A stretch of DNA of 50,386 bases from a virus: positions 1-50,386 of the IMG/VR virus record IMGVR_UViG_3300009509_000028. One strand, written 5' to 3'. A program made the position numbers and the translations under genes. The notes beneath the pieces were generated by a model. The model was not told the DNA's origin and searched no databases. It saw only the letters and a list, made by a program, of their open reading frames with translations. Of this stretch, positions 1 to 45,265 are shown piece by piece. Each line of letters opens with the position of its first letter. Within the stretch, counting starts at the first letter, position 1.

Positions 1-116
1 CACATGTACATGTTGCGCGATTGACGGAGAAGGACTCACGCGAAAAGGTGAGCAAGGTGCTTCGGGCACTGGCTGACCAGATCGAGCACAATATCGCGGG
101 CGGCAGGCTCCACTGA
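1..116 (+). CDS. C-terminal end of an upstream gene (partial)
   Basis: An open frame enters from the left edge and ends at TGA 114-116. The 37 visible residues are mostly helical and charged (TEKDSREKVSKVLRALADQI, then a Gly-rich HNIAGGRLH end). The stop overlaps the next ATG as TGATG, the coupling style used throughout this window, which supports a real gene rather than chance openness. Too little is visible to assign a family. By position it lies upstream of the minor head protein, where a portal or small accessory gene is common, but nothing seen supports the portal specifically. Confidence 0.55.
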   Translation, partial: HVHVARLTEKDSREKVSKVLRALADQIEHNIAGGRLH

Positions 117-1078
117 TGGCGACCTTCAAGAATCGCGCGTTAACACTAGCGACGGTCGGCGTCCTTTCGGGCGTCGCGATCACGCTCGCCACGAACGGGG
201 TCATCCAGCAGAAGGTCGCCGAGCCGAGCGTCATTGTAACGCCTCCCGTTACAGGCGGATGGCGCCCGGGCAGAGCGCCGCGGGAATGGCGCCATGAGTA
301 TCCTCGCCTCTATACGCACGCTGCGTACATCGAGCTAACGCTCGACGGCGAGACCGGCTTCCAGCACATCCGCGCGCCGGCGCCGCGGGACTTCAAGCAT
401 ACCGCAACGCTGTACGTTACGATCGACGGTGCAGCGGAGTCATGGCTGTCGCACCTGTACAGAGCGCAGAGTTCCATCGCGCTGATTCTGGAGTCGACTA
501 CTCAATCAGCACTGGAGCACCTGACAACCGACACGCACGGCGGCGATCTGGTACTGGAGTCCAGCACGCAGTCGCTGTACATGCCGGCGGACGGGACCTA
601 CTACGCGGACGGCGCGGTGGTTCTGGAGATCGCCGGCAGCGCAGACGTTACGTTCGAGAGGGCGCGGCTACCAGATGAACCGGTTCTCGCGGCCCGGGAA
701 TACGTGCACTACACAGACCCGGTCGAGTTCGTACCCGAAGGCGGCTCGATCAGTGCATTCTTCCCGGGTCCGCGGGCCTTCGGGCACGTCGGGACGGCAG
801 AGCTGGAGTTCGAAGCATGGAGCAGCGTCGATTATGCCCCTGTGAGGGCACCAGAGGCTGCACACTGGCACATCGGGTATCTGGACATAGGTCTGGATGG
901 GGGCGCGAATACGGCGCTCTACCATGCCGAGAATCGGTTCCACGGGCACCGGGGGGTGTTCGACGCAGTGGTCGAGCTGGCTTCGTACACAGAGCTGCAG
1001 CATGATACACTGCCGGCGGTGTACGACGAGGATGCGGAAATCCTCTTGTTATTTGCTCAGATGATGGGGGACGAATGA
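116..1078 (+). CDS. membrane-anchored, beta-rich phage protein, unknown function
   Basis: A 320-aa protein that starts at an ATG overlapping the upstream stop. Residues about 7-28 form a hydrophobic segment after a basic start (ATFKNR), so it could be an uncleaved N-terminal anchor or a signal peptide. The rest is beta-strand-like, with several similar strand pairs (IELTLDGE, LYVTIDGA, IALILEST, LVLESSTQ, VVLEIAGS, ELEFEAWS), suggesting a repeated beta-sandwich or jelly-roll surface. I do not recognise a family. It sits directly before the minor head protein, so a minor structural or membrane-associated role is possible, but that is inference. Its last codons overlap the next small gene. Confidence 0.7.
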   Translation: MATFKNRALTLATVGVLSGVAITLATNGVIQQKVAEPSVIVTPPVTGGWRPGRAPREWRHEYPRLYTHAAYIELTLDGETGFQHIRAPAPRDFKHTATLYVTIDGAAESWLSHLYRAQSSIALILESTTQSALEHLTTDTHGGDLVLESSTQSLYMPADGTYYADGAVVLEIAGSADVTFERARLPDEPVLAAREYVHYTDPVEFVPEGGSISAFFPGPRAFGHVGTAELEFEAWSSVDYAPVRAPEAAHWHIGYLDIGLDGGANTALYHAENRFHGHRGVFDAVVELASYTELQHDTLPAVYDEDAEILLLFAQMMGDE

Positions 1079-1227
1079 GCAAGGTCAGAAAAGTGAAAGA
1101 CCCGGCAAGGCTCGGGCGTGCGTGTTACCAGTACGGCTACGAAGGTCGGGTGTATTGCGGCGCGAGCGCACTAGCGCACGCGCAGAAGACTGCACCGAAA
1201 CCGGACAAGCCGAAGAATGGCAGATAA
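1075..1227 (+). CDS. small basic protein (50 aa), unknown
   Basis: ATG 1075 overlaps the previous stop (ATGA), and the frame stays open to TAA 1225-1227, overlapping the start of the giant head protein at 1217. The product is very basic, begins MSKVRKVKDPARLGRACYQY, has two cysteines (about residues 17 and 28) and ends in a Lys/Pro-rich tail. Without it there would be a 138-bp gap in an otherwise gapless operon, and the overlaps on both sides are typical of a coupled gene. No family recognised. Confidence 0.6.
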   Translation: MSKVRKVKDPARLGRACYQYGYEGRVYCGASALAHAQKTAPKPDKPKNGR

Positions 1228-4200
1228 TTTCTCAACCCGCTATGCGAAGGCACTGCTGAAGCACGACATCGACCTGATGCGTGTCGATGCTGGCACGCGT
1301 CGCCAGATTCTCGGAGTCCTGAAAGGGCTGGAGAAGGACGCGATGACGAAGCTGGCGAAGTTCGGCACCATGTCCGGAGCAATCGCCACGCCCACGATCA
1401 AGCAGGCAGAGCTGATCGCGCAGTCGATCGCGCCCACGATCAAGAAAGCGTACACCCAGATGACGGACCTGCTGGGCGACACGATGGTGAAGGTCGGCGG
1501 GCACCAGAGCGACATCGTGCTGACAGAACTCAACCGGGCAGTGACGGTCGACCTCGGACTGAAGAAGCTCGACCTCAACGTCCTGAAGACGCTCCCGGGC
1601 AAGACCATGATCGAGGGCGCCCCGATCGCGCAGTGGTTCAACAAGCAGAGCGAGGACCTGCAGACGAAGTTCCTCAACCAAATGCGCATGGGCATCGTCA
1701 ACGGTGAATCGATTCCGGAGATCGCGCGCCGTGTCAGGGGCACAGCGGCGAACGGATTCAAGGACGGGATCATGCAGGCGTCGCGCTCGCAGGCACAGAC
1801 GCTCACCCGGTCCGCGGTCATGGCATCCGCCAACAAGGCACGGCTCGCGACGTACGCGCAGAACGCTGCAGTCATCAAGGGCATGCAGTGGCTGTCGACA
1901 CTGGACTCCCGGACAAGCGATATCTGCAAGGGACTCGATCAGGAGTCGTGGTATCTGGGCGGCGATCCGATCCCGCCAACAAAGACACCGTTCCTTGGTC
2001 CTCCGCCGGCGCACTTCAACTGCCGCTCGACGCTCGTGCCAGTCACGAAGTCATGGAGCGAACTGACGAAGAACCCGAAGATCAAGAAGAAGCTCGACGC
2101 GTTACCGCCGAGCAAGCGCAGAGGGTTACGCGCAAGCATGGACGGACTCGTGTCCGACAAGCTGGATTACGAGGACTGGCTGTCGATGCAGGACCCGGGC
2201 TTCCAGCTCGACGTGCTGAAGCCGGTCAAGTTCCGCATGTGGAAGGCAGGGCAGATCGACTTCCGTGATCTGGTCGACCAGTCGCACAACCCGCTCACGA
2301 TCGACGAACTGATCGCGAAGTTCGGCTCGCCGAAGATATCACTGGAGGAAGCGCTCAAGCGTGCAGCCGAGACGCAGAACGTCGCGGGCGTGGAGTTCGC
2401 AAGTCCGACGCAGTGGTACAAGGCGTTCGCGGATACAAGCGTTACGCCTGAGCAGATTGTCGACTCGTTCGACGACGTCACACAGGCGAAGCTCTGGGAT
2501 ACCGCCGACAAGCTGAAGGCGCAGAAGACCACATCCTCGATCTACATGAAGAACGGCGAGTGGGACCCGAAGCGCGTCGCAGAAGTGCACGACGACATCG
2601 TCGACGCGTTTATCAACGAGGCAACGATCAAGGCAGCAACGCCGGCAGCCGGCGAGCAGCCGCGGTTCGTCATGCTGGGCGGGCGCGGTGCGTCGGGCAA
2701 GGGCAGTCTCACGACCCCGAAGAGCAAGGGCGGTCTGGGCGTGCTGGACGAGAACAAGTTCATCGTGCTGGACAACGACAAGATCAAGGCGATGCTCCCC
2801 GGGTACGACGGCTGGAACGCGTTCCTGTATCACGACGAGGCAGGCTTCATCCTGAACCGCATCGACGCGACCGCGCGCAAGCACGGACTAAACGTCGTGT
2901 GGGACGGTACGCTGCGCTCGATCAACACCCCGCTGTCACGCATGGCGAAGTACGAGGCTGCCGGTTATCAGACCGAGGGGTACTACATGTTCCTCCCGCC
3001 GCAGAAGGCAGCGGTGCGTACGGTGCAGCGGTTCAAGGGTCCGAAGGGCGACTATTCTGGACGTTTCGTCCCGCCGAAGGTTGTGCTCAGTAACACGGCG
3101 AACGAGGCGGTGTTCGAGGAGCTGTCGAAGAAGTTCACGAAGTGGGAGTTCTACGACAATCAGGGCGCGAAGCCGAAGCTGATCGGCAAGGGCGGCATCC
3201 CGGAAGAGCTGCAGATCAAGAAGCTGCAGGCACAGGTTGAAGAGTACAAGGTCGCGGTGTCCGATGGGGTGAAGCCGAACAAGGCAGCGCAGGCCGCGTA
3301 TGACAGCCTGAGCGCCCCTGAGAAGGCGGCGATCACGACCGAGGTACAGGCAGCCGTCGAGGCGAAGATCGCAGCCGAGAAGGCACTGGAGGAAGCGAAG
3401 GCGCAGTATATCAAGGCAATGCTGGATCGCGTCCCGCCACCACCGAGTGCATCGAAGATCATCAACTCCCTGAGCGATGAGGCATACGGCGCACTGCAGG
3501 AGCAGATCGCAACGCTCAAGCGTGCCGCGATAGCAACCGCAAAGGAAGAGCAGGTACTCGCGCAGCAGATCGCGGAAGCGAAGACAGCGTACAAGCAGGC
3601 GGCGCTCGCGAACAAGGCAGTCGACGACGACACACTGGCAACCCTGCTCAAGGCTCCGCCGGACGAAGTCGCCGCGGTCATGAAAGAGGCCGAAGAGCTG
3701 AAGAAGATCGCAGCCGAAGCTGCGCAGGAGATCAAGGCGGCAAAGGCTGAGTACAAGGCAGCACTGATCGAGGGCAAGGGCGTCTCGAACGCGGTCGAGG
3801 ACATCATCGCCGGACTCCCTGAAGCAGAATTCTCCGCACTGGAGGCGGAGATTAACGCAGCGAAGTCCGCACTCGTTACGAAGAAAGCCGCGCAGGCAGA
3901 CTATATTGTCACGAGCGTGACTGGCGATCTCATGGATGAGAAGACAATAAGTGTATTCAAGTCCCTGTCAGCGGACGAGGTCGCGATCTGGAACAAGCAG
4001 GCAGAAGCCGCGCAGCATGTGCAGGACATGATGATCAAGGCCGATCTGCAGCTGAAGATGAAAGCGATCAACGCCCTGAAGAAAGAGATGGGGGTGCTCC
4101 CGTCTGACCTGCTGCCGGAGGGTATGCTGAAGAAGCTCGTCACGTCCGCCGACGACCTGAAGACACAGGCGAAGGCGAACTACCTCGACAACATCATCAA

Positions 4201-7200
4201 CGGCGCACCGCTCCAGCAGAACACGAAGGACGTGGTCAAGCTGATGCAGCTGGATGATCTGGAAAAGTGGGCGAATGAAGCAAGCGCCGCGCTCAATGCG
4301 AACAAGGCAGCCGCCGCGGACAAGGCAGCGCAGCGTAAACTGGACAAGTACGCCGCGCAGAAGGCCACGATCGAGAAGAAGGCACTGACCTCTGCGAAGG
4401 CGAAGTACGGGCAGGATATCGCGTCCGACCTTGTGGCGTGGGATGATCTGGCGGCTTCCGAGAAACTGGCACTGGTTGACAAAGAAGTCGAGATCGCGAA
4501 GGCGAAGAAGAAGATCACCGACGGGCTAGTCAATTACAAGAAGGCGGTCATCGCCGGCAAGACGCCACCGCCGTCCGCGGTCAAGGCGTTCGACTCACTG
4601 GATGCCGCAGGGCAAGAGAAGGTCCTGCAGCAGATCGCCGAGAAGAAAGGCGTGCCGTTCAAGGCAGCCGCACCGGTCGCGGACGACGAGAAAGTGGTGC
4701 AGCTGCAGCAACTGGTCAACCAGTGGGCAGACGAGTGGATCACTGATTCCGCAGCGGCTGTCAAGGCAAGCGAGATTCTGGGCGAAGACCTGCTCAAGCT
4801 GGAGCCGTGGGAGCTGGCGGACAAGATCGACGATGCGATCGTGAAGCTCAAGGCTTCCGCTCTGAAGGGCAAGCCGCTACCGACGCCGGAGTATGTCGAC
4901 GAGGTTGTGAGCGGCGACATCAACCTGTCAAGCGAGAAGATGGTCGAGATGGCAGCGCAGATCAAGGGCGTGCCACCGAACACCCTGACAACGGACGCGG
5001 CGTTCGACATCCTCGACGATTATGCAGCTACAGCGGCAAAGGTTGCGGCGAAGGAAGCGATCAACGAGGTCGCCGGCGAAGCCGAGCATGTGCTGGAGCA
5101 GCTGATCCAGAGCGACAACATCGGGGCACTGAACAAGGCGAAGTATTTCCTGAACAAGCCGGTCAAGCCGATCAGTTCGTACGCTACGCCCGAGGCACTG
5201 GCTGCCGATATCAAGGCGGTGAAGGGCGAACTCGCGCAGGTCATACAGGACGGGCAGGTATTCAAAGCGTCGAAGAAAGTCGCGCAGGAATTCCTGACAG
5301 AGTACAACAACATCGCGAGCGACGTCTCACCTGATCACCTGCTGAAGCTGGTCGCTCACCAGTTCGATATCACTGACCCGAAGGCGATTGCATTCAACGA
5401 CGCGCTTGAATGGCTGGAAGCGTTCGCCAGCGGCTATACCAAGACCGCAAAGACACTCGGCGAGAAGATCGTCAACGGCGCGGACGCTCTCGGGGCACTG
5501 AAGACGCCATTGAAGCCGCCGGCGCCGGCGCGGGCGGTTGCAGTCAAGATGACGCCGGCGAAGGCCGACGACCTGTACGTGAAGTGGTTACAGGATGCCG
5601 TTACCGACGACGAGCTGATGTCGACCGTCTCGAAGTTCCTCAAGGTTCCGGTTGAGCAACTGACACCGAAGCTCGCATCGAAGTACGTGCAGGCTGTGGC
5701 GGTAGAGGACGCTACCTCCCTGAAGAAGGCGCTCGACGCGATCAAGGCGAACCCAGTCGCGAAGGCGCAGGCTCCGAAGCTGCCAACACCAGCAGAAGCC
5801 GATAAGTTGTACAAGACATGGCTGTCAACAGACATGAACGGCGACCAGCTGATCGCGGAAGTCGCGAAGCTCACGGACTACTCCGCCGGACAGCTGACAG
5901 AAGCGAGCGCCGCAAAACTGCTGCAGACACTTGGTTCCGGAGACAAGAACGGACTGGCGAAAGCGATCGAAGCGATCGAGAAGACAGCACCGAACGCCGC
6001 GAAGAAAGCACCGCCGCGCGTGCCGATTATGGAGGCGACGGTCGAGCAGTACCAGAACAAGGCGGCAGCACTGGCGGCGGACATCGACTCCGGTGCTTTG
6101 CAAGGATACGACGTCATCAAGGCAGCGGAGAAGTTCTTCGGCACCGAAGGCGGCGTATCGAAGGCGGCATACGACGACATGCCGCAGAACATCAAGGACA
6201 GTCTGAAGATCGGATTGCAGTCGGCGCTCAAGAATGCGTCGACTACTCCCTCGAAGGCGAAGAGTGCGCTCGAATCTGCGCAGAAGGTACACCTGAAATC
6301 GAAGATCGAGGTCCTGCAGGAAGCACCGAAGACCGAGCCGCCACCGAAGGTCGTCACCGAGAAGGCGCCCGGTCCGAACATGGACAAGCTGACGAAGGTC
6401 GGACAGCAGGGTGGATCGAATCCGGGCGGCACGTATCAGGACACCGAGACAGGGGTGAAGTGGTACGTCAAGACGCCGGCGTCCGAGGACATTGCACGGA
6501 ACGAAGTACTCGCCGGCAAGCTGTACGAGAAGCTGGGGATCGAGGTCCCGGAGATGTACAACGTAACGCTCAACGGCAAGCCGTCGATCGCGTCGAAGAT
6601 CATCGACGGACTGAGCAGCGACTCCGCGGCGTTACGCGCAGGAAAGGTCGCGAACGCTGCCGAGGGTTTTGTCGCGGATGCGTGGCTGGGCAACTGGGAC
6701 GTGGTGGGCATGGACTTCGACAACCTGCTCGTGAAGGCAGGGCGCGCGATCCGCGTCGACACGGGCGGCGCCCTACGCTACCGGGCACAGGGCGGGCTTA
6801 AAGGTAACGCGTTCGGCAAGACGGTCGACGAACTGGACAGCATGCGCAATGCTGGAACGAACAGGCAGACGGCGTCTGTGTTCGCAGGCGTTACCGATGC
6901 ACAGATGAAAGCCGCGGCGAAGAAGATTGTCGCGCTTACCCGGGACGAGATCGCGGAGATCGTTGTCAAGTACGGACCGAAGGAAAAGGCGGTACAGGAC
7001 GAGCTGATCGACATCCTCGTCGCACGGCAGCAGGACCTGAAGAAGCGGTTCAAGATACGCGCAACGCGCGCGAAGCCGGCGGCGGTCAAGACTCAGGCAA
7101 AACTGTCCGACAAGGACTTCATCGCGGACAGCGAGCTGAAGGAAATCCAGAACGCCCGGGCGAACGGTTACGCGCGTAAGTCGGACGGTCTCAACATCGA

Positions 7201-8824
7201 GGACCAGCAGATTCTGTTCTGGGAAGAGGCAAGCCCGCAGGCGACAGGATTCGCGCCAGATAGAACCGGTGCATTCTTCAAGGTGCGCAACGACGCATAC
7301 AAGGCAATGAACGAGCGCATGCAACCGTTCAGACCGACGGGCGCGATGCGTGCAGCAGAAGAAAACCTCCCGCCGAAGCTCAAGGACGCAATCAACGAGA
7401 CGCAGACGCTGCATAACGCTGTGATCAAGGCGGTGAAAGGTATCGCGACGAACAGCGAGACGCGAGCAGTCGACCTTGAACGTGTTGCTGCTGTGCGTGA
7501 CTCGTGGAAAGCGGCAAGGGATGCGATCGAGACCGCGATCCGGTCCGGCGATATCGATGCCGGCGACCTCGCCAAGTTCGACGCCAAGTACGACCCGATC
7601 CTGAAGGCACTGTCGAAGGCTACAGCGAACGGCGAGGGCGGGGCACAGACATGGGGATGGTCCGGCGGAAACATCGAGGCGATGGCGGTCAAGCGCGTCG
7701 AGAAGAAGGTTGTCGAAGAGGTCAAGAAAGAGGCGCCGACGATCACATGGAAATGGACGAAGGGCGCGTACAACGCCAAGGAAGTCTCGAAGGGGTTCAT
7801 GAAGGACACCGGTCAGCGGCTGCATTTCCGCAGGGCGGGCGAAACGTGGGCGCATTATTTCGAGGCAGAGCTGCCGAACGGTGTACGCATCCGGTACTGG
7901 GATGACACCGCACCGAAGGCGCAGCAGGGCACAGTCGAGATGATCGCACCGAAGGCCGGACAGGAAGGCAAGAACCTGATACAACAGGCACTGGATCAGC
8001 TGGAGATCGATTACACACGACCCTCTGTCGCGGACGACGAAGAGCGTTACCTCCGGCAGCTTCTGTCCTCCGTGGGCAAGAACCCGGACCGCGTTACGCG
8101 TGCCGCGGATCAGGGCAGCCGGATCGAAAGGCTTGCAAAGGCAGCGAGCGAGGAGTACGGTGTAGAGGACATCAGAAAGCTGCCGAACTACAGACCCGCG
8201 GGTACCGAGCGATCTTTCGGGCAGGGCTTCAGGTATTACGAACGCCCGGACCTGTACGCGCCCGACGACCTGAAGTGGATGGACGAGAACGTCTTCGTGC
8301 ACAGTTCTGACGACCCGACGGCGTTCTTCAAGGCGTTGATCGAAGACGGCGGGAACTTCGGCGGCAAGCAGGACGTGTTGCGCCGCGGCAAGGACTTCAC
8401 CGCGCACGGCATGTCGCCTGATGCTGATATGAACAATGGCGGCGGCACGTACGCATACTTCAAGGCACGACAGAAGGGAGCGTCGAACGGCACCGGGTTC
8501 TACTTTGATGGGCGTCTGGTGAGGCGCACAGATTTACGCGCGCACTACGACGACCCGTACGGAAGGATCGAGGAGCACCAGCGGACCCTGTTCAAGTCTG
8601 GCGAGCTGAACAGTTCCGGCCTGAATAGCCGCAGTTTTTACGAGGTCATTTTCAAGAACGGCGTATCGTTGTACGACTACAACTTCCAGCTGCGGCTTGG
8701 CAGTCAGTCGCAGGTCGATGACCTGATCGCATGGACGAAGAAACAAGGCGGGGACTTCGCAAAGGGTCTCTGGCCCGACGGGCGTAAACTGGAAGACGTG
8801 ATCATACTGGGGAGCAGGTACTGA
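1217..8824 (+). CDS. giant polyvalent minor head protein: MuF + zeta-like kinase + HipA-like kinase + C-terminal toxin-like domain
   Basis: A 2535-aa protein. Residues about 150-285 resemble the Mu gpF/SPP1 gp7 minor head domain, with D230-S-R-T-x-x-I-C237 and H266-F-N-C269-R. Residues about 483-640 resemble zeta-toxin kinases: Walker A GGRGASGKGS at 488-497 and DGTLR from D563. Residues about 670-1150 are Ala/Lys/Glu-rich helical repeats, and two ~78-aa repeats begin at T1446 and T1524. Residues about 1724-1880 look like a HipA/PI-kinase fold, with NWD at 1826-1828, N1836 and D1848-T-G-G. From about 2360 an HSS...GMSP...GGGTY segment faintly recalls ADP-ribosyltransferase-like toxins (weak). 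Known MuF polyvalent proteins are packaged and delivered with the DNA; that role here is inference. The usual MuF protein has a few hundred residues. Start chosen at ATG 1217, overlapping the upstream gene. Confidence 0.8.
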   Translation: MADNFSTRYAKALLKHDIDLMRVDAGTRRQILGVLKGLEKDAMTKLAKFGTMSGAIATPTIKQAELIAQSIAPTIKKAYTQMTDLLGDTMVKVGGHQSDIVLTELNRAVTVDLGLKKLDLNVLKTLPGKTMIEGAPIAQWFNKQSEDLQTKFLNQMRMGIVNGESIPEIARRVRGTAANGFKDGIMQASRSQAQTLTRSAVMASANKARLATYAQNAAVIKGMQWLSTLDSRTSDICKGLDQESWYLGGDPIPPTKTPFLGPPPAHFNCRSTLVPVTKSWSELTKNPKIKKKLDALPPSKRRGLRASMDGLVSDKLDYEDWLSMQDPGFQLDVLKPVKFRMWKAGQIDFRDLVDQSHNPLTIDELIAKFGSPKISLEEALKRAAETQNVAGVEFASPTQWYKAFADTSVTPEQIVDSFDDVTQAKLWDTADKLKAQKTTSSIYMKNGEWDPKRVAEVHDDIVDAFINEATIKAATPAAGEQPRFVMLGGRGASGKGSLTTPKSKGGLGVLDENKFIVLDNDKIKAMLPGYDGWNAFLYHDEAGFILNRIDATARKHGLNVVWDGTLRSINTPLSRMAKYEAAGYQTEGYYMFLPPQKAAVRTVQRFKGPKGDYSGRFVPPKVVLSNTANEAVFEELSKKFTKWEFYDNQGAKPKLIGKGGIPEELQIKKLQAQVEEYKVAVSDGVKPNKAAQAAYDSLSAPEKAAITTEVQAAVEAKIAAEKALEEAKAQYIKAMLDRVPPPPSASKIINSLSDEAYGALQEQIATLKRAAIATAKEEQVLAQQIAEAKTAYKQAALANKAVDDDTLATLLKAPPDEVAAVMKEAEELKKIAAEAAQEIKAAKAEYKAALIEGKGVSNAVEDIIAGLPEAEFSALEAEINAAKSALVTKKAAQADYIVTSVTGDLMDEKTISVFKSLSADEVAIWNKQAEAAQHVQDMMIKADLQLKMKAINALKKEMGVLPSDLLPEGMLKKLVTSADDLKTQAKANYLDNIINGAPLQQNTKDVVKLMQLDDLEKWANEASAALNANKAAAADKAAQRKLDKYAAQKATIEKKALTSAKAKYGQDIASDLVAWDDLAASEKLALVDKEVEIAKAKKKITDGLVNYKKAVIAGKTPPPSAVKAFDSLDAAGQEKVLQQIAEKKGVPFKAAAPVADDEKVVQLQQLVNQWADEWITDSAAAVKASEILGEDLLKLEPWELADKIDDAIVKLKASALKGKPLPTPEYVDEVVSGDINLSSEKMVEMAAQIKGVPPNTLTTDAAFDILDDYAATAAKVAAKEAINEVAGEAEHVLEQLIQSDNIGALNKAKYFLNKPVKPISSYATPEALAADIKAVKGELAQVIQDGQVFKASKKVAQEFLTEYNNIASDVSPDHLLKLVAHQFDITDPKAIAFNDALEWLEAFASGYTKTAKTLGEKIVNGADALGALKTPLKPPAPARAVAVKMTPAKADDLYVKWLQDAVTDDELMSTVSKFLKVPVEQLTPKLASKYVQAVAVEDATSLKKALDAIKANPVAKAQAPKLPTPAEADKLYKTWLSTDMNGDQLIAEVAKLTDYSAGQLTEASAAKLLQTLGSGDKNGLAKAIEAIEKTAPNAAKKAPPRVPIMEATVEQYQNKAAALAADIDSGALQGYDVIKAAEKFFGTEGGVSKAAYDDMPQNIKDSLKIGLQSALKNASTTPSKAKSALESAQKVHLKSKIEVLQEAPKTEPPPKVVTEKAPGPNMDKLTKVGQQGGSNPGGTYQDTETGVKWYVKTPASEDIARNEVLAGKLYEKLGIEVPEMYNVTLNGKPSIASKIIDGLSSDSAALRAGKVANAAEGFVADAWLGNWDVVGMDFDNLLVKAGRAIRVDTGGALRYRAQGGLKGNAFGKTVDELDSMRNAGTNRQTASVFAGVTDAQMKAAAKKIVALTRDEIAEIVVKYGPKEKAVQDELIDILVARQQDLKKRFKIRATRAKPAAVKTQAKLSDKDFIADSELKEIQNARANGYARKSDGLNIEDQQILFWEEASPQATGFAPDRTGAFFKVRNDAYKAMNERMQPFRPTGAMRAAEENLPPKLKDAINETQTLHNAVIKAVKGIATNSETRAVDLERVAAVRDSWKAARDAIETAIRSGDIDAGDLAKFDAKYDPILKALSKATANGEGGAQTWGWSGGNIEAMAVKRVEKKVVEEVKKEAPTITWKWTKGAYNAKEVSKGFMKDTGQRLHFRRAGETWAHYFEAELPNGVRIRYWDDTAPKAQQGTVEMIAPKAGQEGKNLIQQALDQLEIDYTRPSVADDEERYLRQLLSSVGKNPDRVTRAADQGSRIERLAKAASEEYGVEDIRKLPNYRPAGTERSFGQGFRYYERPDLYAPDDLKWMDENVFVHSSDDPTAFFKALIEDGGNFGGKQDVLRRGKDFTAHGMSPDADMNNGGGTYAYFKARQKGASNGTGFYFDGRLVRRTDLRAHYDDPYGRIEEHQRTLFKSGELNSSGLNSRSFYEVIFKNGVSLYDYNFQLRLGSQSQVDDLIAWTKKQGGDFAKGLWPDGRKLEDVIILGSRY
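3226..4660 (+). repeat. degenerate tandem helical repeats inside the giant head protein
   Basis: Roughly eight units of about 50-70 residues (protein residues about 670-1150) share a pattern: an A-K-x-x-Y-x-x-A helix start, a G or D turn, a Pro-rich or polar linker, an S-L-S-x-E-type helix cap, then an AAK-rich helix. Clear unit starts read EEYKVAVSDG, AQYIKAMLDR, TAYKQAALAN, AEYKAALIEG, ANYLDNIING and VNYKKAVIAG. This is protein-level repetition with diverged DNA. It probably forms a long helical rod or solenoid linking the N-terminal head domain to the enzymatic domains. Confidence 0.6.
5552..5990 (+). repeat. two ~75-aa tandem repeats in the giant head protein
   Basis: Two adjacent modules begin TPAKADDLYVKWL (residue 1446) and TPAEADKLYKTWL (residue 1524). 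Both continue with a D/N-D/G-D/Q-L motif, a VxKxLxxxxxQLT helix, an ASKYVQ / AAKLLQ helix and a final LxKAxxAI helix. The units align along their whole length, so this is an internal duplication within a helical-bundle module. Function unknown. Confidence 0.65.
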
Positions 8825-9195
8825 TGAATGAGGCACTATCGAAAGCGATCGAGGACCGGGTGCCGATGTACTTCGACGCCGGCGACGGGCGCGACAGGTA
8901 CATGGCGGAGGTGTTCGAGATTCCGGACGGGATCGCGTGGGTCGACCCCGGGTGGCAGGCTGACTTCATGGGGCACCCGGTGCACAAGCTCACCGGGGAG
9001 ATCAAGCAGATCGCCGACTACGAATGGCAGATCGGAGACGTAACGATCGGGCGCACGGTGCCCGGGCTGCAGTCGTGGGGGCAGCGGGAAATCTGGGAGG
9101 ATTACCTGAAAGAGCACCCGGAGACGACCCGGGTAAAGGCAATGCGGGAGGTCGCGAACTTTTTCGAGATGCCGCTCGCGAAAATAAAACCTTGA
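8824..9195 (+). CDS. hypothetical protein (123 aa)
   Basis: ATG 8824 overlaps the stop of the giant head protein (TGATG), so it is translationally coupled. The acidic protein starts MNEALSKAIEDRVPMYFDAG, has a Trp/Gly-rich core and ends in a helical segment with TRVKAMREVANFFEMP. No family recognised. By position it could be an immunity or accessory partner of the polyvalent protein, but nothing in its sequence proves this. Its 3' end overlaps the -35 box of the promoter at 9192. Confidence 0.7.
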   Translation: MNEALSKAIEDRVPMYFDAGDGRDRYMAEVFEIPDGIAWVDPGWQADFMGHPVHKLTGEIKQIADYEWQIGDVTIGRTVPGLQSWGQREIWEDYLKEHPETTRVKAMREVANFFEMPLAKIKP

Positions 9196-9220
9196 CTTTT
9201 ACGCCGGCTTGTGTGACACT
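9192..9220 (+). promoter_or_regulatory. early-type sigma70-like promoter
   Basis: TTGACT at 9192-9197, then 17 bp, then GACACT at 9215-9220. The box sits in TTGACTTTTACGC preceded by an AAAATAAAA tract, matching the promoter repeated at 39883, 41214, 41646 and 48984. It lies just upstream of the gene at 9251, whose start region also carries the CAGAAAGGGAG leader seen at early genes. The -10 is weaker than in the other copies. Confidence 0.6.
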
Positions 9221-9250
9221 GCAGGCTGGACCAGAAAGGGAGAACTGCCT

Positions 9251-9637
9251 ATGTGGGTATTTTTGAATAATGCCATGCTGTCGATCGTGGCAGACATGAA
9301 CGATCGGGACCGGCTGCTGGTGCGGGCGCGCTGTGATGGTGACATCGAGCGGACCTTCCCGGACGCCGAGACGTTCACTGATCCGACGGCAGACTACTAC
9401 TGGCGGGCGTATCTCCCCCGGGACGTGGTCGCGAAGGCGCTCGCCGACAGGATCGAGGACATCGGGTATACTAACTTCAAGAACAGTATCCCGAAGCCCG
9501 ACATGGAGCGGCACGGCGCGTACATTGGGGTCTGGTCGGTCATGAACCGCTACCAGAACAACAACCGTTACGCGCAGGAGTACGCGGCTTCCGCGATCGC
9601 CGATGCGCTCTGGGATGACGAACCGATCGAGGTATAA
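9251..9637 (+). CDS. hypothetical protein (129 aa), early-type expression signals
   Basis: The start at ATG 9251 was chosen because AGAAAGGGAG lies 8-17 bp upstream; the frame could begin at 9209 but that position has no ribosome binding site. The protein begins MWVFLNNAML and is acidic, with a helical C-terminal half rich in Tyr/Asn (VMNRYQNNNRYAQEYAASAI). No family recognised. With the following 64-aa gene it forms a short unit between an early-type promoter and a palindrome, unlike the surrounding structural genes, which suggests an inserted accessory (moron-like) cassette. That reading is inference. Confidence 0.65.
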   Translation: MWVFLNNAMLSIVADMNDRDRLLVRARCDGDIERTFPDAETFTDPTADYYWRAYLPRDVVAKALADRIEDIGYTNFKNSIPKPDMERHGAYIGVWSVMNRYQNNNRYAQEYAASAIADALWDDEPIEV

Positions 9638-9960: not shown

Positions 9961-10842
9961 ATGATACAAGCGCCGATTGAGCTACCGATACACGCAAGAC
10001 ATCTCAGCATTCAAGCGCAGCCGCAGGGGCAGCGGATCAAATTTGTGAACCCGAACGTCGGGAACTACGACAGGAACATACGGCACGCCGCCTCGCTGGG
10101 GCTGCGGACCTACCGGAAGAACGAACTCCGCAAGGACGGCAAAAAGCCCGTCGTGCTGGTGGTCGGTTCCGGTCCGTCCCTGAAGGACCCGGCTGTGATC
10201 GAGCGGATCAAGGAAGAACACGAGAAGGGCACCATCATCTTCGCGTGCAAGGCCGCGATCAAGGTCCTTTACGATCAAGGCGTAACGCCTGACTACGGCG
10301 TCAGCATGGACCCGGGCGCACACATCGCGAACCCGAACAAGATTTTCAAGGCTCCCGGGATGACGCACATCATCGCGTCGTCAAGTGATCCGGAGCTGTT
10401 CGAGTACCTGAAGGACGAGAATGTGATCATCTTCCATTCTGCCACCGGGTACGAGAAGGAGGTCGAGCTGTACAACACGCTCTTCGAGACACACGACTGC
10501 ATGGGTGGCGGCTACAACGTCGTGAACCGGGCAGTCTCCGCGGCGTTCTTCATGGGCGCCCGCAAGGTAATCCTCGCCGGCAACGACTGCGGATGGCGGA
10601 AGGACGAGGATATGTATGCCGACGGTCCCGCACATCGCGAGGGCGTCGACATGACGGATCACGGCATGGTCGATGGTCGCGAGTGGATGACTCGCCCCGA
10701 TATGCTGGCATCCGGGGTGGCACTGGCGAAGCTCGCCAAAGCTCGACCGCATGCGATCGAGTTCATAGGGGACACGCTACCGAGCAAGCTCGTCGACAAG
10801 GACGACGAGTTCTTGAACAAGTGCGCGTCGTTTGGTAACTAA
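9961..10842 (+). CDS. DUF115 / MAF-like (6-hydroxymethylpterin pyrophosphokinase MptE-like) protein
   Basis: A 293-aa Rossmann-like protein. The strand-loop VVLVVGSGPSL (G69 to L74), then FACKAAIKVL...GVTPDYGVSMDP and later MGARKVILAGNDCGW, are the signature segments of the DUF115 family. That family includes motility-associated (MAF) flagellin glycosylation factors and archaeal MptE. The ribosome site GAGGGGA lies 8 bp before ATG 9961. In phages such genes cluster with glycosyltransferases, as here, so a role in transferring or handling an activated sugar is likely but inferred. It stands between the polyvalent head protein and the scaffold gene. Confidence 0.75.
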   Translation: MIQAPIELPIHARHLSIQAQPQGQRIKFVNPNVGNYDRNIRHAASLGLRTYRKNELRKDGKKPVVLVVGSGPSLKDPAVIERIKEEHEKGTIIFACKAAIKVLYDQGVTPDYGVSMDPGAHIANPNKIFKAPGMTHIIASSSDPELFEYLKDENVIIFHSATGYEKEVELYNTLFETHDCMGGGYNVVNRAVSAAFFMGARKVILAGNDCGWRKDEDMYADGPAHREGVDMTDHGMVDGREWMTRPDMLASGVALAKLAKARPHAIEFIGDTLPSKLVDKDDEFLNKCASFGN

Positions 10843-10862: not shown

Positions 10863-11675
10863 ATGGCATTGAAAGTAGTCTACAAGAAACTGGAAGATAT
10901 CCCCGAGAGCTTACGGGACAATTACAAGCAGGTCGGCGAAGAGTACGTGCTCGACACTGATGACAGCGACTTCAAGTCGCGGATCAGCGAGTTCCGCAAC
11001 ACCAACATCGACCTGAACAAGCAGATGCAACAGCTGCAGGAGCAGCTGAAGGGATTCGATGATGTACAGAAGCAGCTGAAGAGCTTCGAGGGACTGGACC
11101 CGGCGAAGGCTCGCGAGGCAATGGAAAAGCTCCAGATGCTGAACGAGAAGAAGCTGATCGAGGCTGGCAAACTGGATGAAGTACTGGAGCAGCGCACCAC
11201 GCGCATGCGCTCCGACTACGAGGGGCAGATTCAAGCCCTGCAGAATTCCCTCGAACAGCAGATGAACGACACGAAGACATTCAAGTCGAAGCTGACCGAG
11301 GTTGTGATCGACAACTCGTTGCAGGCTGCAGCGAGCAAGGTCGCAAGTGTACGTCCCGGTGCGATGCAGGATATCATCTCCCGCGGACGTTCGGTGTGGT
11401 CTATCAATGACGATGGTACGCCAGTGCCCACTGGCAGAGACGGAAAGGTAATGTACGGCAAGGATGGTAAAACCATGCTTTCCATGGATGAGTGGGCACA
11501 GTCACTGGTAGAGGAAGCCGGCTACCTGTTCGAACAGAGCAGCGGCGGCGGCGCCCGGGGCGGTATGCAGGGCGGCGGGACTAGCTCGAAGGTGGTATCG
11601 ATGCGTGATCAGCAGGCGCTGAACAACAGCATCGAGGACATCGCCAAGGGCAACGTCGAGGTCGTGAGCGAGTAA
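10863..11675 (+). CDS. capsid scaffolding protein (gp20-like)
   Basis: A 270-aa protein with a long coiled coil at residues about 40-140 (NKQMQQLQEQLKGFDDVQKQLKSF, then EALQNSLEQQMNDTK-like heptads). A compact domain with GRSVWSINDDGTPVPTGRDGK follows, then a Gly-rich linker and a short charged tail. Coiled-coil, Gln/Glu-rich proteins directly before the coat gene are the classic scaffold. The tail-proximal segment with the D-G-K-x-x-x-S-M-D-E-W pattern is common in phage gp20/scaffold proteins. SD GGAGGG precedes ATG 10863. The 108-bp gap to the coat gene includes a second copy of the CCCGGAGGGTT leader. Confidence 0.75.
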   Translation: MALKVVYKKLEDIPESLRDNYKQVGEEYVLDTDDSDFKSRISEFRNTNIDLNKQMQQLQEQLKGFDDVQKQLKSFEGLDPAKAREAMEKLQMLNEKKLIEAGKLDEVLEQRTTRMRSDYEGQIQALQNSLEQQMNDTKTFKSKLTEVVIDNSLQAAASKVASVRPGAMQDIISRGRSVWSINDDGTPVPTGRDGKVMYGKDGKTMLSMDEWAQSLVEEAGYLFEQSSGGGARGGMQGGGTSSKVVSMRDQQALNNSIEDIAKGNVEVVSE

Positions 11676-11783
11676 CGACAGGCAGCAAATAGAGCAGTAA
11701 AAGCGCTCGACGTCGGTGACGCCTGAGCAGGCCCGGAGGGTTAAACATCAAACACTTGTTAAAATCAACTGGAGAATATCTCA

Positions 11784-12935
11784 ATGGCAAACACAATTGA
11801 CAACATTCTCGCCAAGATTCTAGCACGTGGCCTTCTGGCTCTGCGTGAGCAGGCTATTATGCCGCGTCTGGTGAACGGCGACTATTCATCTGAAGCTGCA
11901 AGCAAGGGCGACACCATCGACGTGCCGATTCCTTCCGAGGTAACCGCCACGGATGTGACCCCGAGCAACACTCCTCCGACCCCGGGCAACTCACAGCCGG
12001 GCAAGGTGCAGATTCAGCTCAACAACTGGAAGAAGGCCGACTTCTTCCTGACCGACAAGGAAATGGTGGAGATCGAGCGGAACGCTCACTTCATGCCGAT
12101 GCAGATGTCCGAGGCAATCCGCTCTCTGGCGAACGTCGTCAACGAAGACATCCACGCCGAGTATCTGGGTGTGTATGGTCTCACCGGCACCGCCGGCACC
12201 ACTCCGTTCGCATCGACTGTGGTCGACGCCACGAACGCCCGCAAGGTGCTGCACAAGCAGCGTGCACCTCGCACCGAGCGCCGCGGTGTTCTCGACTATG
12301 ACGCCGAGGCGAATGCCCTCGCCCTGTCGCCCTTCGCCGATGCCGAGAAGACCGGCAGCTCCATGGTGAAGATCGAAGGCGAGATCGGTCGCAAGTACGG
12401 CATCGACTGGTTTGCCGATGACGCCGTGGTGACACACACCGCCGGCTCACTGGCTGCGACCGGTGCTGTCGTGGGTTCTACCACTGCAGCTGGTGCTTCC
12501 AGTCTGGACGTCAAGTCCGCGTCCGCCGTCGGTAACGTCCTCGTGGGCGATATCTTCACCATCGCCGGCGACACGCAGACCTACGTCGTACAGGCCACTG
12601 TCTCCGCGATTGCCTCTGGCACCGCGAAGACTCTGAGCATCAATCCGCCTCTGAAGACTGCCGCGACTGCAGCTGCCGCGATCACCATCGTGGGCACTCA
12701 CGTCGTGAATCTGGCATTCCATCGTGACGCCTTCGCCTTCGCGAACCGTCCTCTGGTTGCCAGCACGCAAGACATGGCACTGGGTTCCCGGATCATGTCC
12801 ATGACCGACCCGCAGACCGGTATCACGCTGCGTCTGGAAGTGTCTCGTCAGTACAAGCAGGTTGTGTGGGAGTTCGATATCCTGTGGGGTGCCAAGCTGG
12901 TACGCCCGGAACTCGCAACCCGCATCGCCGGCTAG
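11784..12935 (+). CDS. major capsid protein, P22 coat-like
   Basis: A 383-aa protein starting MANTIDNILAKILARGLLAL, with REQAIMPRLVNGDYSSEAASKGDTIDVPIP, ADFFLTDKEMVEIE and a C-terminal LRLEVSRQYKQVVWEFDILWGAKLVRPELA. This is the pattern of the P22 gene 5 coat family (HK97 fold). A Ser/Ala/Thr-rich segment at about residues 220-305 looks like an inserted surface domain. Position after a scaffold gene and before a strong terminator fits a highly expressed coat gene. SD GGAGA lies upstream of ATG 11784. Confidence 0.8.
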   Translation: MANTIDNILAKILARGLLALREQAIMPRLVNGDYSSEAASKGDTIDVPIPSEVTATDVTPSNTPPTPGNSQPGKVQIQLNNWKKADFFLTDKEMVEIERNAHFMPMQMSEAIRSLANVVNEDIHAEYLGVYGLTGTAGTTPFASTVVDATNARKVLHKQRAPRTERRGVLDYDAEANALALSPFADAEKTGSSMVKIEGEIGRKYGIDWFADDAVVTHTAGSLAATGAVVGSTTAAGASSLDVKSASAVGNVLVGDIFTIAGDTQTYVVQATVSAIASGTAKTLSINPPLKTAATAAAAITIVGTHVVNLAFHRDAFAFANRPLVASTQDMALGSRIMSMTDPQTGITLRLEVSRQYKQVVWEFDILWGAKLVRPELATRIAG

Positions 12936-14123: not shown

Positions 14124-15125
14124 ATGCGCGCATTGATCACCGGCGTCACCGGGCAGGACGGCGCCTATCTTGCACAGCTGCTACTCAGCAATGACTACGA
14201 CGTCGTCGGCGTGTCACCACGCCGCAGCGACGACGGCAAAAACATGTGGCGCCTTGATTCTCTCGGCGTCACTGAGCATCCGCGTTACACCCACGAGACG
14301 TGCGACATTACGTGTTCCGCAAGCGTCACGAGCCTGTTCACGCGTTACGACTTCGACTACGCATACAACCTCGCGGCGCAGAGCTTCGTCGCAGAGTCGT
14401 TCCGTTCGCCGTTCGCCACGTCGCAGATCAATTACTTCGGCGTCCTGAACATTCTCGAAGCGATCAGGCAGATCAGTCGCGAGACGCGGTTCTATCAGGC
14501 GAGCACGAGCGAGATGTTCGGACTGGTCTACGTGGATGGACAGAACGAAGAGACACCGTTCCATCCGCGCAGTCCGTACGGCGTCGCGAAGGCTGCGGCG
14601 CACTACCTCGTGCAGAACTACCGGGAAGCGTACGGCTTGTTCGCGTGCTGCGGGATTCTGTTCAACCACGAGTCACCGCTCCGGGGTCTGGAATTCGTCA
14701 CGCGCAAGATCACAGACGGCGTCGCGCGCATCGTGTCCGGAAAGTCTCAAGTGTTACGTCTGGGAAACATGGACGCGCTGCGCGACTGGGGATATGCACC
14801 CGACTACGTTCGTGGCATGTACATGATGCTGCAGCACGGAGAGCCGGACGATTATGTCCTTGCCACAGGCGTAACGCATAGCGTACGCGATGTTGTGGAC
14901 ATCGCCTTCGGTGTGGTAGGATTGGACCCCGACGAGTTCATCGAGCAGGACCTCGAATACATGCGACCGAGCGACGTGCCGTTACTATGCGGTGACGCCT
15001 CGAAAGCGAAGCGGGTTCTCGGGTGGACTCCGACGGTGGACTTCGAATCCATGATCCGCGAGATGGTGCACTTCGATCTGCAGCGGCATGGTTATGACAT
15101 ACTGACAGAACTCGCAAGGGGATAA
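14124..15125 (+). CDS. gmd: GDP-mannose 4,6-dehydratase
   Basis: A 333-aa extended short-chain dehydrogenase. The NAD(P)-binding G7-V-T-G-Q-D-G13 motif is followed by LAAQSFVAESFRSP, the catalytic-site ASTSEMFG, Y152-x-x-x-K156, ILFNHESPLRG and GNMDALRDWGYAPDYV. These are signature strings of Gmd, which converts GDP-D-mannose to GDP-4-keto-6-deoxy-mannose, the precursor of fucose, rhamnose or perosamine nucleotides. No downstream epimerase/reductase is seen here, so the final sugar is unknown. SD GGAGGGG precedes the ATG. It lies in the head-gene region between glycosyltransferase and methyltransferase genes. Confidence 0.92.
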   Translation: MRALITGVTGQDGAYLAQLLLSNDYDVVGVSPRRSDDGKNMWRLDSLGVTEHPRYTHETCDITCSASVTSLFTRYDFDYAYNLAAQSFVAESFRSPFATSQINYFGVLNILEAIRQISRETRFYQASTSEMFGLVYVDGQNEETPFHPRSPYGVAKAAAHYLVQNYREAYGLFACCGILFNHESPLRGLEFVTRKITDGVARIVSGKSQVLRLGNMDALRDWGYAPDYVRGMYMMLQHGEPDDYVLATGVTHSVRDVVDIAFGVVGLDPDEFIEQDLEYMRPSDVPLLCGDASKAKRVLGWTPTVDFESMIREMVHFDLQRHGYDILTELARG

Positions 15126-15128
15126 TCT

Positions 15129-15755
15129 ATGGCATTACAACAAACAGGCGAGCGACAGATCGCCGAACAACTGGAGCACATCAAGCCGAACCATCGCAAC
15201 CGCTACCAGTTCGCGATCGACATGATCCTCCGGGATATCGGACCACATGCGAAAGTCCTCGACTGCGCATGCGGCGTGGGCTACGGGACCATGATGCTCG
15301 CCGAACAGCTAGAGCATGCGCACGGGTTCGATGTTGAACCGGAAGCGATCGCCGCTGCAATACGCGCTTATCATCTCCCGAACAACACGTTCAAGGTTTG
15401 CGATCTAGGCGATCCGGCGGCGTGGGCAGAGGCAATTGCAGGGGAAGCCTTTGACGCGATAGTTTCGATAGAGACAATCGAACACCTTCAGGACGCGGAG
15501 GACCTGCTTGCGCGCTATGCGGCACAGGTACCGTACTTGATCGCCTCTGTACCGAACCAGACCGTCGTACCCTTCGAGAAGGCTCGTCATCCGTTTCATT
15601 TCAGACATTACACTCGCTCCGAGTTTAGTGAATTACTGCAGCGCCACGGGTTCGAGATTGTCACGTGGGCTACCCAGTACGACAAGATACCCGGCATCGT
15701 CTACGAAGACGCGGACGACGGGATGGGCTTCATTGTCGCGGCGCGCAGAGTATGA
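15129..15755 (+). CDS. class I SAM-dependent methyltransferase
   Basis: A 208-aa protein with motif I VLDCACGVGYGT (residues 43-54), an acidic motif II (HGFDVEPEAI), FDAIVSIETIEHL and a late FRHYTRSEFSELLQRHGF segment. These are characteristic of small-molecule or sugar class I methyltransferases. No nucleic-acid methyltransferase motif (NPPY/DPPY) is visible. It starts 3 bp after the gmd stop and overlaps the next gene, so methylation of a sugar made by this module is the simplest idea, but the substrate is inferred. Confidence 0.8.
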   Translation: MALQQTGERQIAEQLEHIKPNHRNRYQFAIDMILRDIGPHAKVLDCACGVGYGTMMLAEQLEHAHGFDVEPEAIAAAIRAYHLPNNTFKVCDLGDPAAWAEAIAGEAFDAIVSIETIEHLQDAEDLLARYAAQVPYLIASVPNQTVVPFEKARHPFHFRHYTRSEFSELLQRHGFEIVTWATQYDKIPGIVYEDADDGMGFIVAARRV

Positions 15756-41673: not shown

Positions 41674-41710
41674 GCGATATTTAGCAAAAAAGTCAAAATA
41701 ATTTATGGGC

Positions 41711-41739
41711 TTTACTTTTCAGGCACTTACGCGTAGACT
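41711..41739 (+). promoter_or_regulatory. candidate divergent promoter for the helicase operon
   Basis: TTTACT (41711-41716), 17 bp, TAGACT (41734-41739). TTTACTTTT resembles the early-promoter TTGACTTTT. It lies 35 bp before ATG 41774 and downstream of a potential start at 41705, arguing that 41774 is the true start. Confidence 0.5.
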
Positions 41740-41773
41740 TCTGCAGCGAGAAAGTCAGACATACAGGACAGAC

Positions 41774-43366: not shown

Positions 43367-43382
43367 ACAGAAAGGCAGACTT

Positions 43383-43736
43383 ATGTCAAGAGGAAAAGTG
43401 TTTGTAGTGCAGGAGCCGGTTCGCCGGAATAAAGTGACTGGGGACTTCGAGCCGGTTTTCGATTTGACTCCGGCAGCGGTTTATGGTGACATAGAAATCC
43501 TTCTGCCGCCCGGGCCTGTTATGCTCGCGACGGCTCCGATGAACGACAAGCTGCGGTACGCGCTGCGCAACTTCTGCGACGACGACTACATCTTGCCGAC
43601 CGGGTCACCGCCGGCTATGCTGGCGGCTGGATTTTACGCGGCATATCATAACCGTGGGCGGTACAAAATATTGCAATGGGATAAACGATCGCGGCAGTAT
43701 ATCGTGATTCCAGTAGACTACAACAGAAAGGGGTAA
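43383..43736 (+). CDS. conserved-looking phage protein (117 aa), unknown
   Basis: Starts at ATG 43383 with CAGAAAGGCAG upstream, 16 bp after the helicase stop. MSRGKVFVVQEPVRRNKVTG, then PVMLATAPMNDKLRYALRNF and RYKILQWDKRSRQYIVIPVD. This protein resembles a type found beside helicases in many phage replication modules, but I do not know its function. Basic C-terminus. Confidence 0.75.
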   Translation: MSRGKVFVVQEPVRRNKVTGDFEPVFDLTPAAVYGDIEILLPPGPVMLATAPMNDKLRYALRNFCDDDYILPTGSPPAMLAAGFYAAYHNRGRYKILQWDKRSRQYIVIPVDYNRKG

Positions 43737-43739
43737 CAC

Positions 43740-44297: not shown

Positions 44298-44353
44298 CGC
44301 CCGCGAGCTGGCCCGGGTTTCAAAGGTCGGCAAACATCTGGAGAAAGTAGCAC

Positions 44354-45208: not shown

Positions 45209-45235
45209 ACATAACAAGGGAGGCAGGCAGAGGCG

Positions 45236-45255: not shown

Positions 45256-45265
45256 TGTCCCTACG

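What the first reader, a model, noticed from the sequence alone, without database searches (positions are those of the whole stretch)
1217..8824. 2535-aa polyvalent MuF head protein combining two kinase folds, long repeats and a possible toxin domain
One chain holds a MuF/Mu gpF-like head domain, a zeta-toxin-type P-loop (GGRGASGKGS, residues 488-497; DGTLR from 563), ~480 residues of helical repeats, two ~78-aa repeats, a HipA-like kinase core (NWD 1826-1828, N1836, D1848) and a C-terminal HSS...GMSP...GGG segment that may be toxin-like. MuF polyvalent proteins are known to carry effector domains thought to enter the host with the DNA. Two different kinase-type domains in one MuF chain with a long spacer looks unusual.
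Basis: partly seen in the sequence, partly recalled or inferred. Interest (0 to 1): 0.78.

Follow-up and report, generated by a model that had tools for sequence, protein, structure and literature searches.

The report
Phage head protein carrying three enzyme cargoes
One huge viral head protein is a virus-assembly domain with three swappable add-ons, two kinase-type enzymes and an unclassified ending that usually comes with its own small partner gene, which suggests that many phages carry enzymes in their heads for injection into the cell.

Summary
The 2535-aa ORF (1217-8824) is intact: MuF head domain, zeta-type P-loop kinase, Ala/Lys-rich spacer with one true 78-aa duplication, HipA/CtkA-like kinase, and a conserved C-terminal domain (CTD). 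Active-site residues of both kinases are conserved (K1752, D1828, D1848 in 123/123 kinases; K495, D519, D521, D563 in 22/22 zetas).

All 36 non-redundant complete CTD genes found by a CTD query in IMG/VR carry the kinase, and 35 carry MuF. Phages with 73-84% identical coat proteins have MuF alone, MuF–zeta, MuF–kinase–CTD or all four, so everything after about residue 440 looks like exchangeable cargo. The kinase is followed by the CTD or by a canonical ADP-ribosyltransferase (at least 8 switches on its tree). The downstream 123-aa gene belongs to a family next to 41/78 CTD genes and 0/51 kinase–ART or zeta genes: candidate immunity or packaging partner.

Best read as a stacked MuF polyvalent effector. 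Zeta plus kinase in one chain is rare (window and one relative). The CTD fold is unresolved; ART-like is only suggested. Virion packaging and targets are inferred.

The parts
1217..8824 (+). Whole gene: 2535-aa MuF protein (includes stop)
   Evidence: same four-domain order in L014 (2392 aa)
1217..2536 (+). MuF / head-morphogenesis domain, residues 1-440
   Evidence: PF04233 E 2e-11; phrog_241 E 1e-93; matches short MuF proteins of Vibrio phages and same-coat relative L267
2537..3196 (+). Zeta-type P-loop kinase domain, residues ~441-660 (Walker A K495; D519, D521; D563; R601, R605, R616)
   Evidence: PF06414 E 4e-19; 1gvn E 2e-8; conservation in 22 relatives
3197..5506 (+). Ala/Lys-rich low-conservation spacer, residues ~661-1430
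5507..5977 (+). Tandem ~78-aa duplication, residues ~1431-1587
   Evidence: score 122 against shuffled 30 +/- 5
6374..7057 (+). HipA/CtkA-like kinase domain, residues 1720-1947 (K1752, E1763, D1828, N1836, D1848)
7028..7984 (+). Region joining kinase and CTD: MID segment (~1938-2050), helical and beta parts to ~2256; KIN-to-CTD spacing is conserved (median 293 aa)
7985..8803 (+). Conserved C-terminal domain (CTD), residues 2257-2529 (H2362, R2389, S2400, D2404, R2437, D2439, D2446, E2476, K2480, D2521, R2523)
   Evidence: no Pfam or PHROG match in this region of the window protein
8824..9195 (+). 123-aa 'S' gene overlapping the MuF stop codon: conserved CTD-specific small partner (candidate immunity or packaging protein)
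10863..12935 (+). Head context: scaffold protein (10863-11675) and P22-type coat protein (11784-12935)

Best explanation
The protein is a MuF-type minor head protein that carries a stack of exchangeable effector modules. The N-terminal ~440 residues are the head domain used by short MuF proteins (shown by homology). The rest is cargo (shown as optional and exchangeable by comparing relatives). Module 1 is a zeta-type P-loop kinase. Module 2 is a HipA/CtkA-like protein kinase coupled at conserved spacing to a C-terminal domain. The downstream 123-aa gene makes a protein matched to that C-terminal domain. Inferred steps: the chain is anchored near the portal, is packaged in a few copies and enters the cell with the DNA. 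The zeta module would phosphorylate a small nucleotide-type substrate, the HipA-like kinase a host protein, and the C-terminal domain would act as a further effector, possibly an ADP-ribosyltransferase-like enzyme, because it takes the place of a canonical ADP-ribosyltransferase in sister proteins. The small partner would protect the producing cell from the C-terminal domain (slightly favoured) or help load it into the head.
For: Domains. Active sites conserved: K1752, D1828, D1848 in 123/123, E1763 in 117/123, N1836 in 105/123 kinases; K495, D519, D521, D563, R601, R605 in 22/22 zetas. Same-coat relatives carry MuF alone (L267, coat 77% identical), MuF-zeta (L238 74%, L265 78%), MuF-KIN-CTD (L047/L264 75%) or MuF-zeta-KIN-CTD (L014 83%). 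The CTD is linked to the kinase in 36/36 viral and most bacterial-contig genes found by a CTD query, and to MuF in 35/36. The KIN tree needs at least 8 switches between CTD and ART endings; shuffled labels need 27 on average. The S partner lies next to 41/78 CTD genes and 0/32 KIN-ART plus 0/19 zeta genes (Fisher p 3e-12, relatedness not corrected); it also follows the CTD in phage Pan1, which lacks the kinase, and lies on the opposite strand in L036 and L263. A kinase-ART homologue is annotated 'phage particle associated protein' in the Yersinia phage fHe-Yen8-01 record. Published: MuF proteins as head components and carriers of effectors (PMC5512222, PMC9503650, PMC5576092).
Against: No virion proteomics or activity exists for this protein. 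The CTD has no significant match to any known fold or ART profile. The window's CTD deviates at four nearly invariant positions (F2415 for T, K2416 for R, Y2475 for N, V2477 for T), so it may be altered in activity. A different small-partner family of the KIN-ART genes is marked particle-associated in fHe-Yen8-01, which fits a packaging role as well as immunity. No integrase or resolvase was found in the window, whereas MuF toxins were reported as limited to temperate phages (PMC5576092).
Confidence: 0.66

Rival explanations
1. The C-terminal modules are structural or morphogenetic: the kinase and CTD modify or fold phage head or tail proteins during assembly, and the small gene is a chaperone.
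For: The genes sit in the head module. The KIN-ART partner protein is recorded as particle-associated in fHe-Yen8-01. KIN-CTD spacing is conserved.
Against: Phages with the same coat and scaffold proteins do without KIN, CTD and zeta (L267, L238, L265), and Vibrio phage MAR10, with a 48% identical coat, has a MuF gene of only 1119 bp. The ending switches repeatedly between CTD and ART.
Confidence: 0.14
2. The modules act in the producing cell late in infection or in a lysogen, for example to exclude other phages, rather than being injected. Benler et al. proposed such a role for a HipA-family kinase encoded between portal and capsid genes in 'Gratiaviridae' (PMC8008677).
For: Same genomic position between portal and capsid genes; HipA kinases are known as regulatory toxins; a possible immunity gene implies exposure of the producer.
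Against: The kinase is fused to a head-binding MuF domain in most CTD genes, which favours virion residence. MuF carriers of effectors are widely interpreted as injected (PMC5512222, PMC9503650).
Confidence: 0.12
3. The zeta domain is a relic or has a non-toxic role in this context (for example nucleotide or cell-wall precursor handling during DNA entry), and only the kinase-CTD unit is an effector.
For: All 22 MuF- or phage-linked zetas have D at the position where the TA zeta and PezT sequences have E in the EGT motif. Zeta with KIN in one chain is rare.
Against: P-loop K and the acidic and arginine residues are invariant in the family, and zeta identity between window and L014 (53%) is as high as that of MuF (56%) and kinase (60%) while spacers fell to 25%, so it is under constraint.
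Confidence: 0.2

Closest known systems
MuF polymorphic toxins of temperate phages (Jamet et al. 2017, PMC5576092; Apk2 work, PMC12226406)
   Same: N-terminal MuF domain, long C-terminal extension with toxin-type domains, gene in the head module, small ORF immediately downstream.
   Different: Three effector-type modules instead of one; a HipA-like kinase and this CTD are not described there (no occurrence of 'kinase' or 'zeta' in that main text); no integrase found here. The authors' Ct_MAD domain derives from the COG2369 C-terminus; no direct comparison was possible.
Polyvalent proteins of phages and conjugative elements (Iyer et al. 2017, PMC5512222)
   Same: Many effector domains in one virion-type chain; zeta-like kinases fused to MuF are stated there.
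   Different: The polyvalent kinase family described there has a conserved histidine and aspartate with an insert between them; the present kinase has N-W-D ... D-N ... D-x-G-G and is HipA/CtkA-like. 'HipA' does not occur in that text.
Cyanophage PSS2 MuF-zeta protein
   Same: MuF followed by zeta in one 923-aa chain.
   Different: No kinase or CTD in that ORF; an ART-type match lies in the next, overlapping ORF.
Pseudanabaena phage Pan1 head morphogenesis protein
   Same: MuF plus the same CTD and MID segment, and the S-family gene downstream.
   Different: 927 aa; kinase and zeta are missing.
Kinase-ART proteins of Yersinia phage fHe-Yen8-01, Pseudomonas phages Jeremy, Dolphis and Touem01, Aeromonas phage ST4 and others
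   Same: Same kinase family (39-48% identity in the aligned part), large chain, effector at the C-terminus.
   Different: No MuF domain detected; canonical ADP-ribosyltransferase instead of the CTD; a different small partner family.
HipA / CtkA / HipT kinases
   Same: Predicted fold and catalytic residue pattern.
   Different: A ~230-aa domain inside a head protein; low identity (10-17% in structure matches); only N4-terminal parts of HipA_C are matched by sequence.

Membership tests
MuF polymorphic toxin | N-terminal MuF domain | tested here: met
   PF04233 E 2e-11, above cut-off; phrog_241 E 1e-93
MuF polymorphic toxin | C-terminal extension with a toxin-type domain | tested here: met
   Zeta_toxin PF06414 69 bits against a cut-off of 22; the CTD itself remains unassigned
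MuF polymorphic toxin | Gene in the head/packaging module | tested here: met
   Scaffold and coat genes downstream; the portal side is not in the record
MuF polymorphic toxin | Small ORF (<150 aa) directly downstream, proposed immunity gene | tested here: met
   123 aa overlapping the stop codon; its family is specific to CTD genes; immunity function not tested
MuF polymorphic toxin | Carried by temperate phages | tested here: inconclusive
   No PF00589 or PF00239 match in the window, L014 or L047 records, which may be fragments; CTD relatives lie in assembled bacterial genomes, but prophage borders were not mapped
MuF polymorphic toxin / polyvalent protein | Packaged in the virion and injected | not testable with these tools
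   Only indirect: homologue recorded as particle-associated
Zeta toxin (epsilon-zeta type) | P-loop kinase core above the family cut-off with catalytic-type residues | tested here: met
   note D563 where zeta and PezT have E
Zeta toxin (epsilon-zeta type) | Cognate epsilon-type antitoxin gene | not tested
   No epsilon profile was searched; the S gene follows the CTD, not zeta-only genes (0/19)
HipA/CtkA-type kinase | HipA-like kinase fold | tested here: met
   AlphaFold2 pLDDT 93; Foldseek best hits CtkA 3akl (E 1e-5), HipA 4pu4/4pu5, HipT-type 8ezr; hhalign to HipA_2 probability 97
HipA/CtkA-type kinase | Pfam HipA_C above the curated cut-off | tested here: not met
   Window E 0.037, 14 bits against 30.5; 54/73 members match weakly, best E 1.2e-5. 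Hence 'HipA-like', not filed as HipA
HipA/CtkA-type kinase | ATP-binding Lys, catalytic Asp, Asn and metal-binding Asp | tested here: met
   K1752 123/123, D1828 123/123, N1836 105/123, D1848 123/123
HipA toxin-antitoxin system | HipB-type partner gene | not tested
   No HipB profile was searched; the adjacent S gene tracks the CTD instead
Polyvalent-protein kinase of Iyer et al. 2017 | Histidine and aspartate active-site pair with an insert between them | tested here: not met
   The family has N-W/H-D at this site; definition from PMC5512222
ADP-ribosyltransferase (for the CTD) | Match to an ART profile | tested here: not met
   No Pfam ART in 30 members; hhalign to ART and DarT not significant
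ADP-ribosyltransferase (for the CTD) | ART fold | tested here: inconclusive
   No significant Foldseek hit; DarT only at E 0.83. Control: DarT against canonical ART is also missed by hhalign, so the profile negative has little weight

The most novel reading that the evidence does not exclude
The CTD is a new family of phage-delivered toxin, working together with a virion-borne HipA-like kinase and neutralised by a dedicated small immunity protein (S family). It would define a widespread three-part MuF-kinase-CTD plus S system in phages of many bacterial phyla, of which the window is a version that adds a zeta kinase.
Probability: 0.38. Interest if true: 0.78.

Novelty: new variant of a known kind. 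Interest (0 to 1): 0.62.

Why it matters
It turns a hard-to-read giant protein into a testable parts list. Related phages with the same head but different MuF tails form natural experiments for what each module does. The constant pairing of a HipA-like kinase with the CTD, and of the CTD with one small gene family, points to an unstudied set of virion effectors present in many environmental phages and in contigs from Desulfobacterota, Gammaproteobacteria, Verrucomicrobia and other genomes. HipA-like kinases are known mainly as bacterial toxin-antitoxin enzymes; their use as part of a head protein, if active, would be a new way in which phages modify host proteins at the moment of infection.

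Tried and rejected
Full-length query in IMG/VR found nothing, because only domains are conserved; domain alignments were used instead. PDB sequence profiles for kinase and CTD gave only weak, unrelated hits. Assigning the CTD to ADP-ribosyltransferases was tried by Pfam, hhalign against canonical phage ART, hhalign against DarT, and Foldseek against PDB and BFVD: none significant. The model used also held two non-CTD parts, which weakens the Foldseek test, and a control showed that hhalign misses even DarT against ART, so the ART reading is neither shown nor excluded. Searches for Tox-ART-HYD1 and ART-PolyVal genomes gave too few sequences. An early 'MUF-CTD without kinase' class disappeared when the kinase profile was refined and was dropped. 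The impression that any small downstream ORF marks CTD genes was rejected as non-specific: KIN-ART genes also have one (26/32), but from a different family. Membership in the Iyer 2017 polyvalent kinase family was considered and rejected on the active-site pattern.
Full report
Check of the observation. The ORF at 1217-8824 encodes 2535 residues without interruption. The window is a virus record of 50,386 bases. Pfam finds Phage_Mu_F at residues 151-273 and Zeta_toxin at 472-625, both above their cut-offs; PHROG 241 covers 1-421. The 78-aa duplication is real (score 122 against 30 +/- 5). The long spacer is Ala/Lys-rich and poorly conserved rather than clearly repetitive. Nothing in Pfam, PHROGs or NCBIfam covers residues 660-2535 of the window protein.

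The kinase. Residues ~1720-1947 match large proteins of Pseudomonas, Aeromonas, Morganella, Enterobacter, Yersinia and Gordonia phages at 35-48% identity. In IMG/VR, 370 stretches encode relatives. An AlphaFold2 model from 73 sequences has pLDDT 93, and its best PDB matches are H. pylori CtkA, Shewanella HipA and Legionella HipT-type kinases among general protein kinases. HipA_C is matched by 54/73 members, weakly. Profile-profile alignment with HipA_2 gives probability 97 and E 9e-11, while the same profile against DarT gives nothing. In 123 non-redundant domains K1752, D1828 and D1848 are invariant, E1763 is E or D, and N1836 is N (105) or Q (18). This is the pattern of an active enzyme, not of a pseudokinase.

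The zeta domain. It matches zeta toxin 1gvn (E 2e-8) and PezT. In 22 relatives the P-loop lysine K495, D519, D521, D563, R601 and R605 are invariant, and R616 is kept in 21. The D at 563 replaces the E seen in the two toxins. MuF-zeta fusions exist in cyanophage PSS2 and in L236-L238 and L265, and were noted in the literature (PMC5512222). Zeta together with the HipA-like kinase was seen only in the window and L014.

The C-terminal domain. Residues 2257-2529 define a family: 192 IMG/VR stretches and 38 bacterial-genome contigs from Desulfobacterota, Ectothiorhodospira, Endozoicomonas, Verrucomicrobia, Armatimonadota, Chloroflexota and others. Among non-redundant complete genes found by the CTD query itself, 36/36 viral ones have the kinase and 35/36 have MuF; among the bacterial-contig genes the tally lists 15 with the kinase and 13 with MuF. 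Invariant or nearly invariant polar residues include H2362, R2389, S2400, D2404, R2437, D2439, D2446, E2476, K2480, D2521 and R2523, which fits an enzyme. The window departs at four near-invariant positions. Some of these proteins already sit, without a function, in PHROG 6577.

What the CTD could be. In sister proteins the kinase is followed by a canonical ADP-ribosyltransferase (PF03496), and L034 is MuF-kinase-ART. On the kinase tree of 100 sequences at least 8 switches between the two endings are needed, against 27 for shuffled labels. This suggests functional equivalence. The order of predicted elements and the H...E pair are reminiscent of ARTs, but this is my reading. Foldseek and hhalign give no significant support, and the control shows that hhalign cannot see even DarT against ART.

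The partner gene. The 123-aa ORF at 8824-9195 overlaps the MuF stop codon. Its family lies next to 41/78 CTD genes, 0/32 kinase-ART genes and 0/19 zeta genes without CTD (Fisher p 3e-12, relatedness not corrected). A broader profile covers 61 of 74 first-downstream small ORFs of CTD genes. It follows the CTD in Pan1, where the kinase is missing, and in L036 and L263 it lies next to the CTD gene on the opposite strand (the coordinates were converted by hand). Kinase-ART genes have their own small partner family (21/26), unrelated by profile, and in fHe-Yen8-01 that partner is recorded as particle-associated. Immunity is therefore slightly favoured, with packaging or chaperone function a real alternative.

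Modules and their exchange. The coat protein query found relatives with different MuF genes: L267 has a 386-aa MuF alone (coat 77% identical), L238 and L265 have MuF-zeta (74%, 78%), L047/L264 MuF-kinase-CTD (75%), L014/L262 all four (83%); more distant L276, L290 and L293 (55-59%) have MuF-ART. Vibrio phage MAR10, coat 48% identical, has a MuF gene of 1119 bp. Between window and L014, MuF, zeta and kinase are 56, 53 and 60% identical, the CTD 31% and the spacers about 25%. So the head function needs only the first ~400 residues and the rest looks like beads of cargo on a flexible string.

Mechanism. Shown: the domains, the conserved active sites, the exchange of modules and the specific partner. 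Inferred: packaging, injection, substrates and toxicity. Published work places MuF proteins in heads and interprets MuF-fused enzymes as injected effectors (PMC5512222, PMC9503650, PMC5576092). A HipA-family kinase between portal and capsid genes was reported in 'Gratiaviridae' and interpreted as protection against other phages (PMC8008677); I could not compare it directly.

Novelty. MuF toxins, polyvalent proteins and MuF-zeta fusions are known. I found no description of a HipA-like kinase inside MuF proteins, of the CTD family or of its partner in the papers searched; subscription papers and supplements were not available, so this is not proof of absence. I class it as a new variant of a known kind.

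Noticed in passing
window 9961-10842: MptE-like (PF01973) gene between the MuF region and the scaffold gene, conserved in same-coat relatives (31-73% identity) but absent from the short MuF-scaffold-coat block of Vibrio phage MAR10.
   Followed up: partly
window 9209-9637: Small ORF with a clear counterpart in L014 downstream of its S gene; similar ORFs follow other CTD genes (seen in translations).
   Followed up: no
window 116-1078: 320-aa ORF without any family match, with homologues just upstream of MuF in L014, L236, L265 and L267.
   Followed up: partly
window 14124-15755: Nucleotide-sugar epimerase-like (phrog_540) and methyltransferase-like genes placed among the structural genes.
   Followed up: no
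window 43383-45205: Three neighbouring genes matching cyanophage Pam3 gp32, gp33 and gp34 families.
   Followed up: no
window 41705-48975: SNF2/helicase-like (41705-43366), primase-like (45266-46804) and a UvrD/RecD-like helicase that matches several superfamily-1 helicases in separate pieces (47488-48975).
   Followed up: no
L057:5752-11667: Protein with two kinase domains of this family in tandem.
   Followed up: no
L071, L079, L082, L092: A second, ~500-aa gene with the same kinase at its C-terminus directly downstream of a kinase-ART gene.
   Followed up: no
L009:988-10857 (Actinomycetia phage DSL-LC01): 3289-aa protein with both the kinase and a CTD match but no MuF domain detected.
   Followed up: no
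L007, L010 (Gordonia phages Forza, Phendrix): The kinase is near the N-terminus of a protein encoded directly after the portal gene; in Forza an annotated ADP-ribosyltransferase follows as a separate gene.
   Followed up: no
L012:4795-9295 (cyanophage PSS2): MuF-zeta gene followed by an overlapping ORF with an ART-type match, as if the effector had been split off.
   Followed up: no
L003-L011, L049-L092 loci: Kinase-ART genes are followed by a separate conserved ~160-aa family (21 of 26), recorded as particle-associated in Yersinia phage fHe-Yen8-01; a NUDIX or phosphatase gene often comes next.
   Followed up: partly
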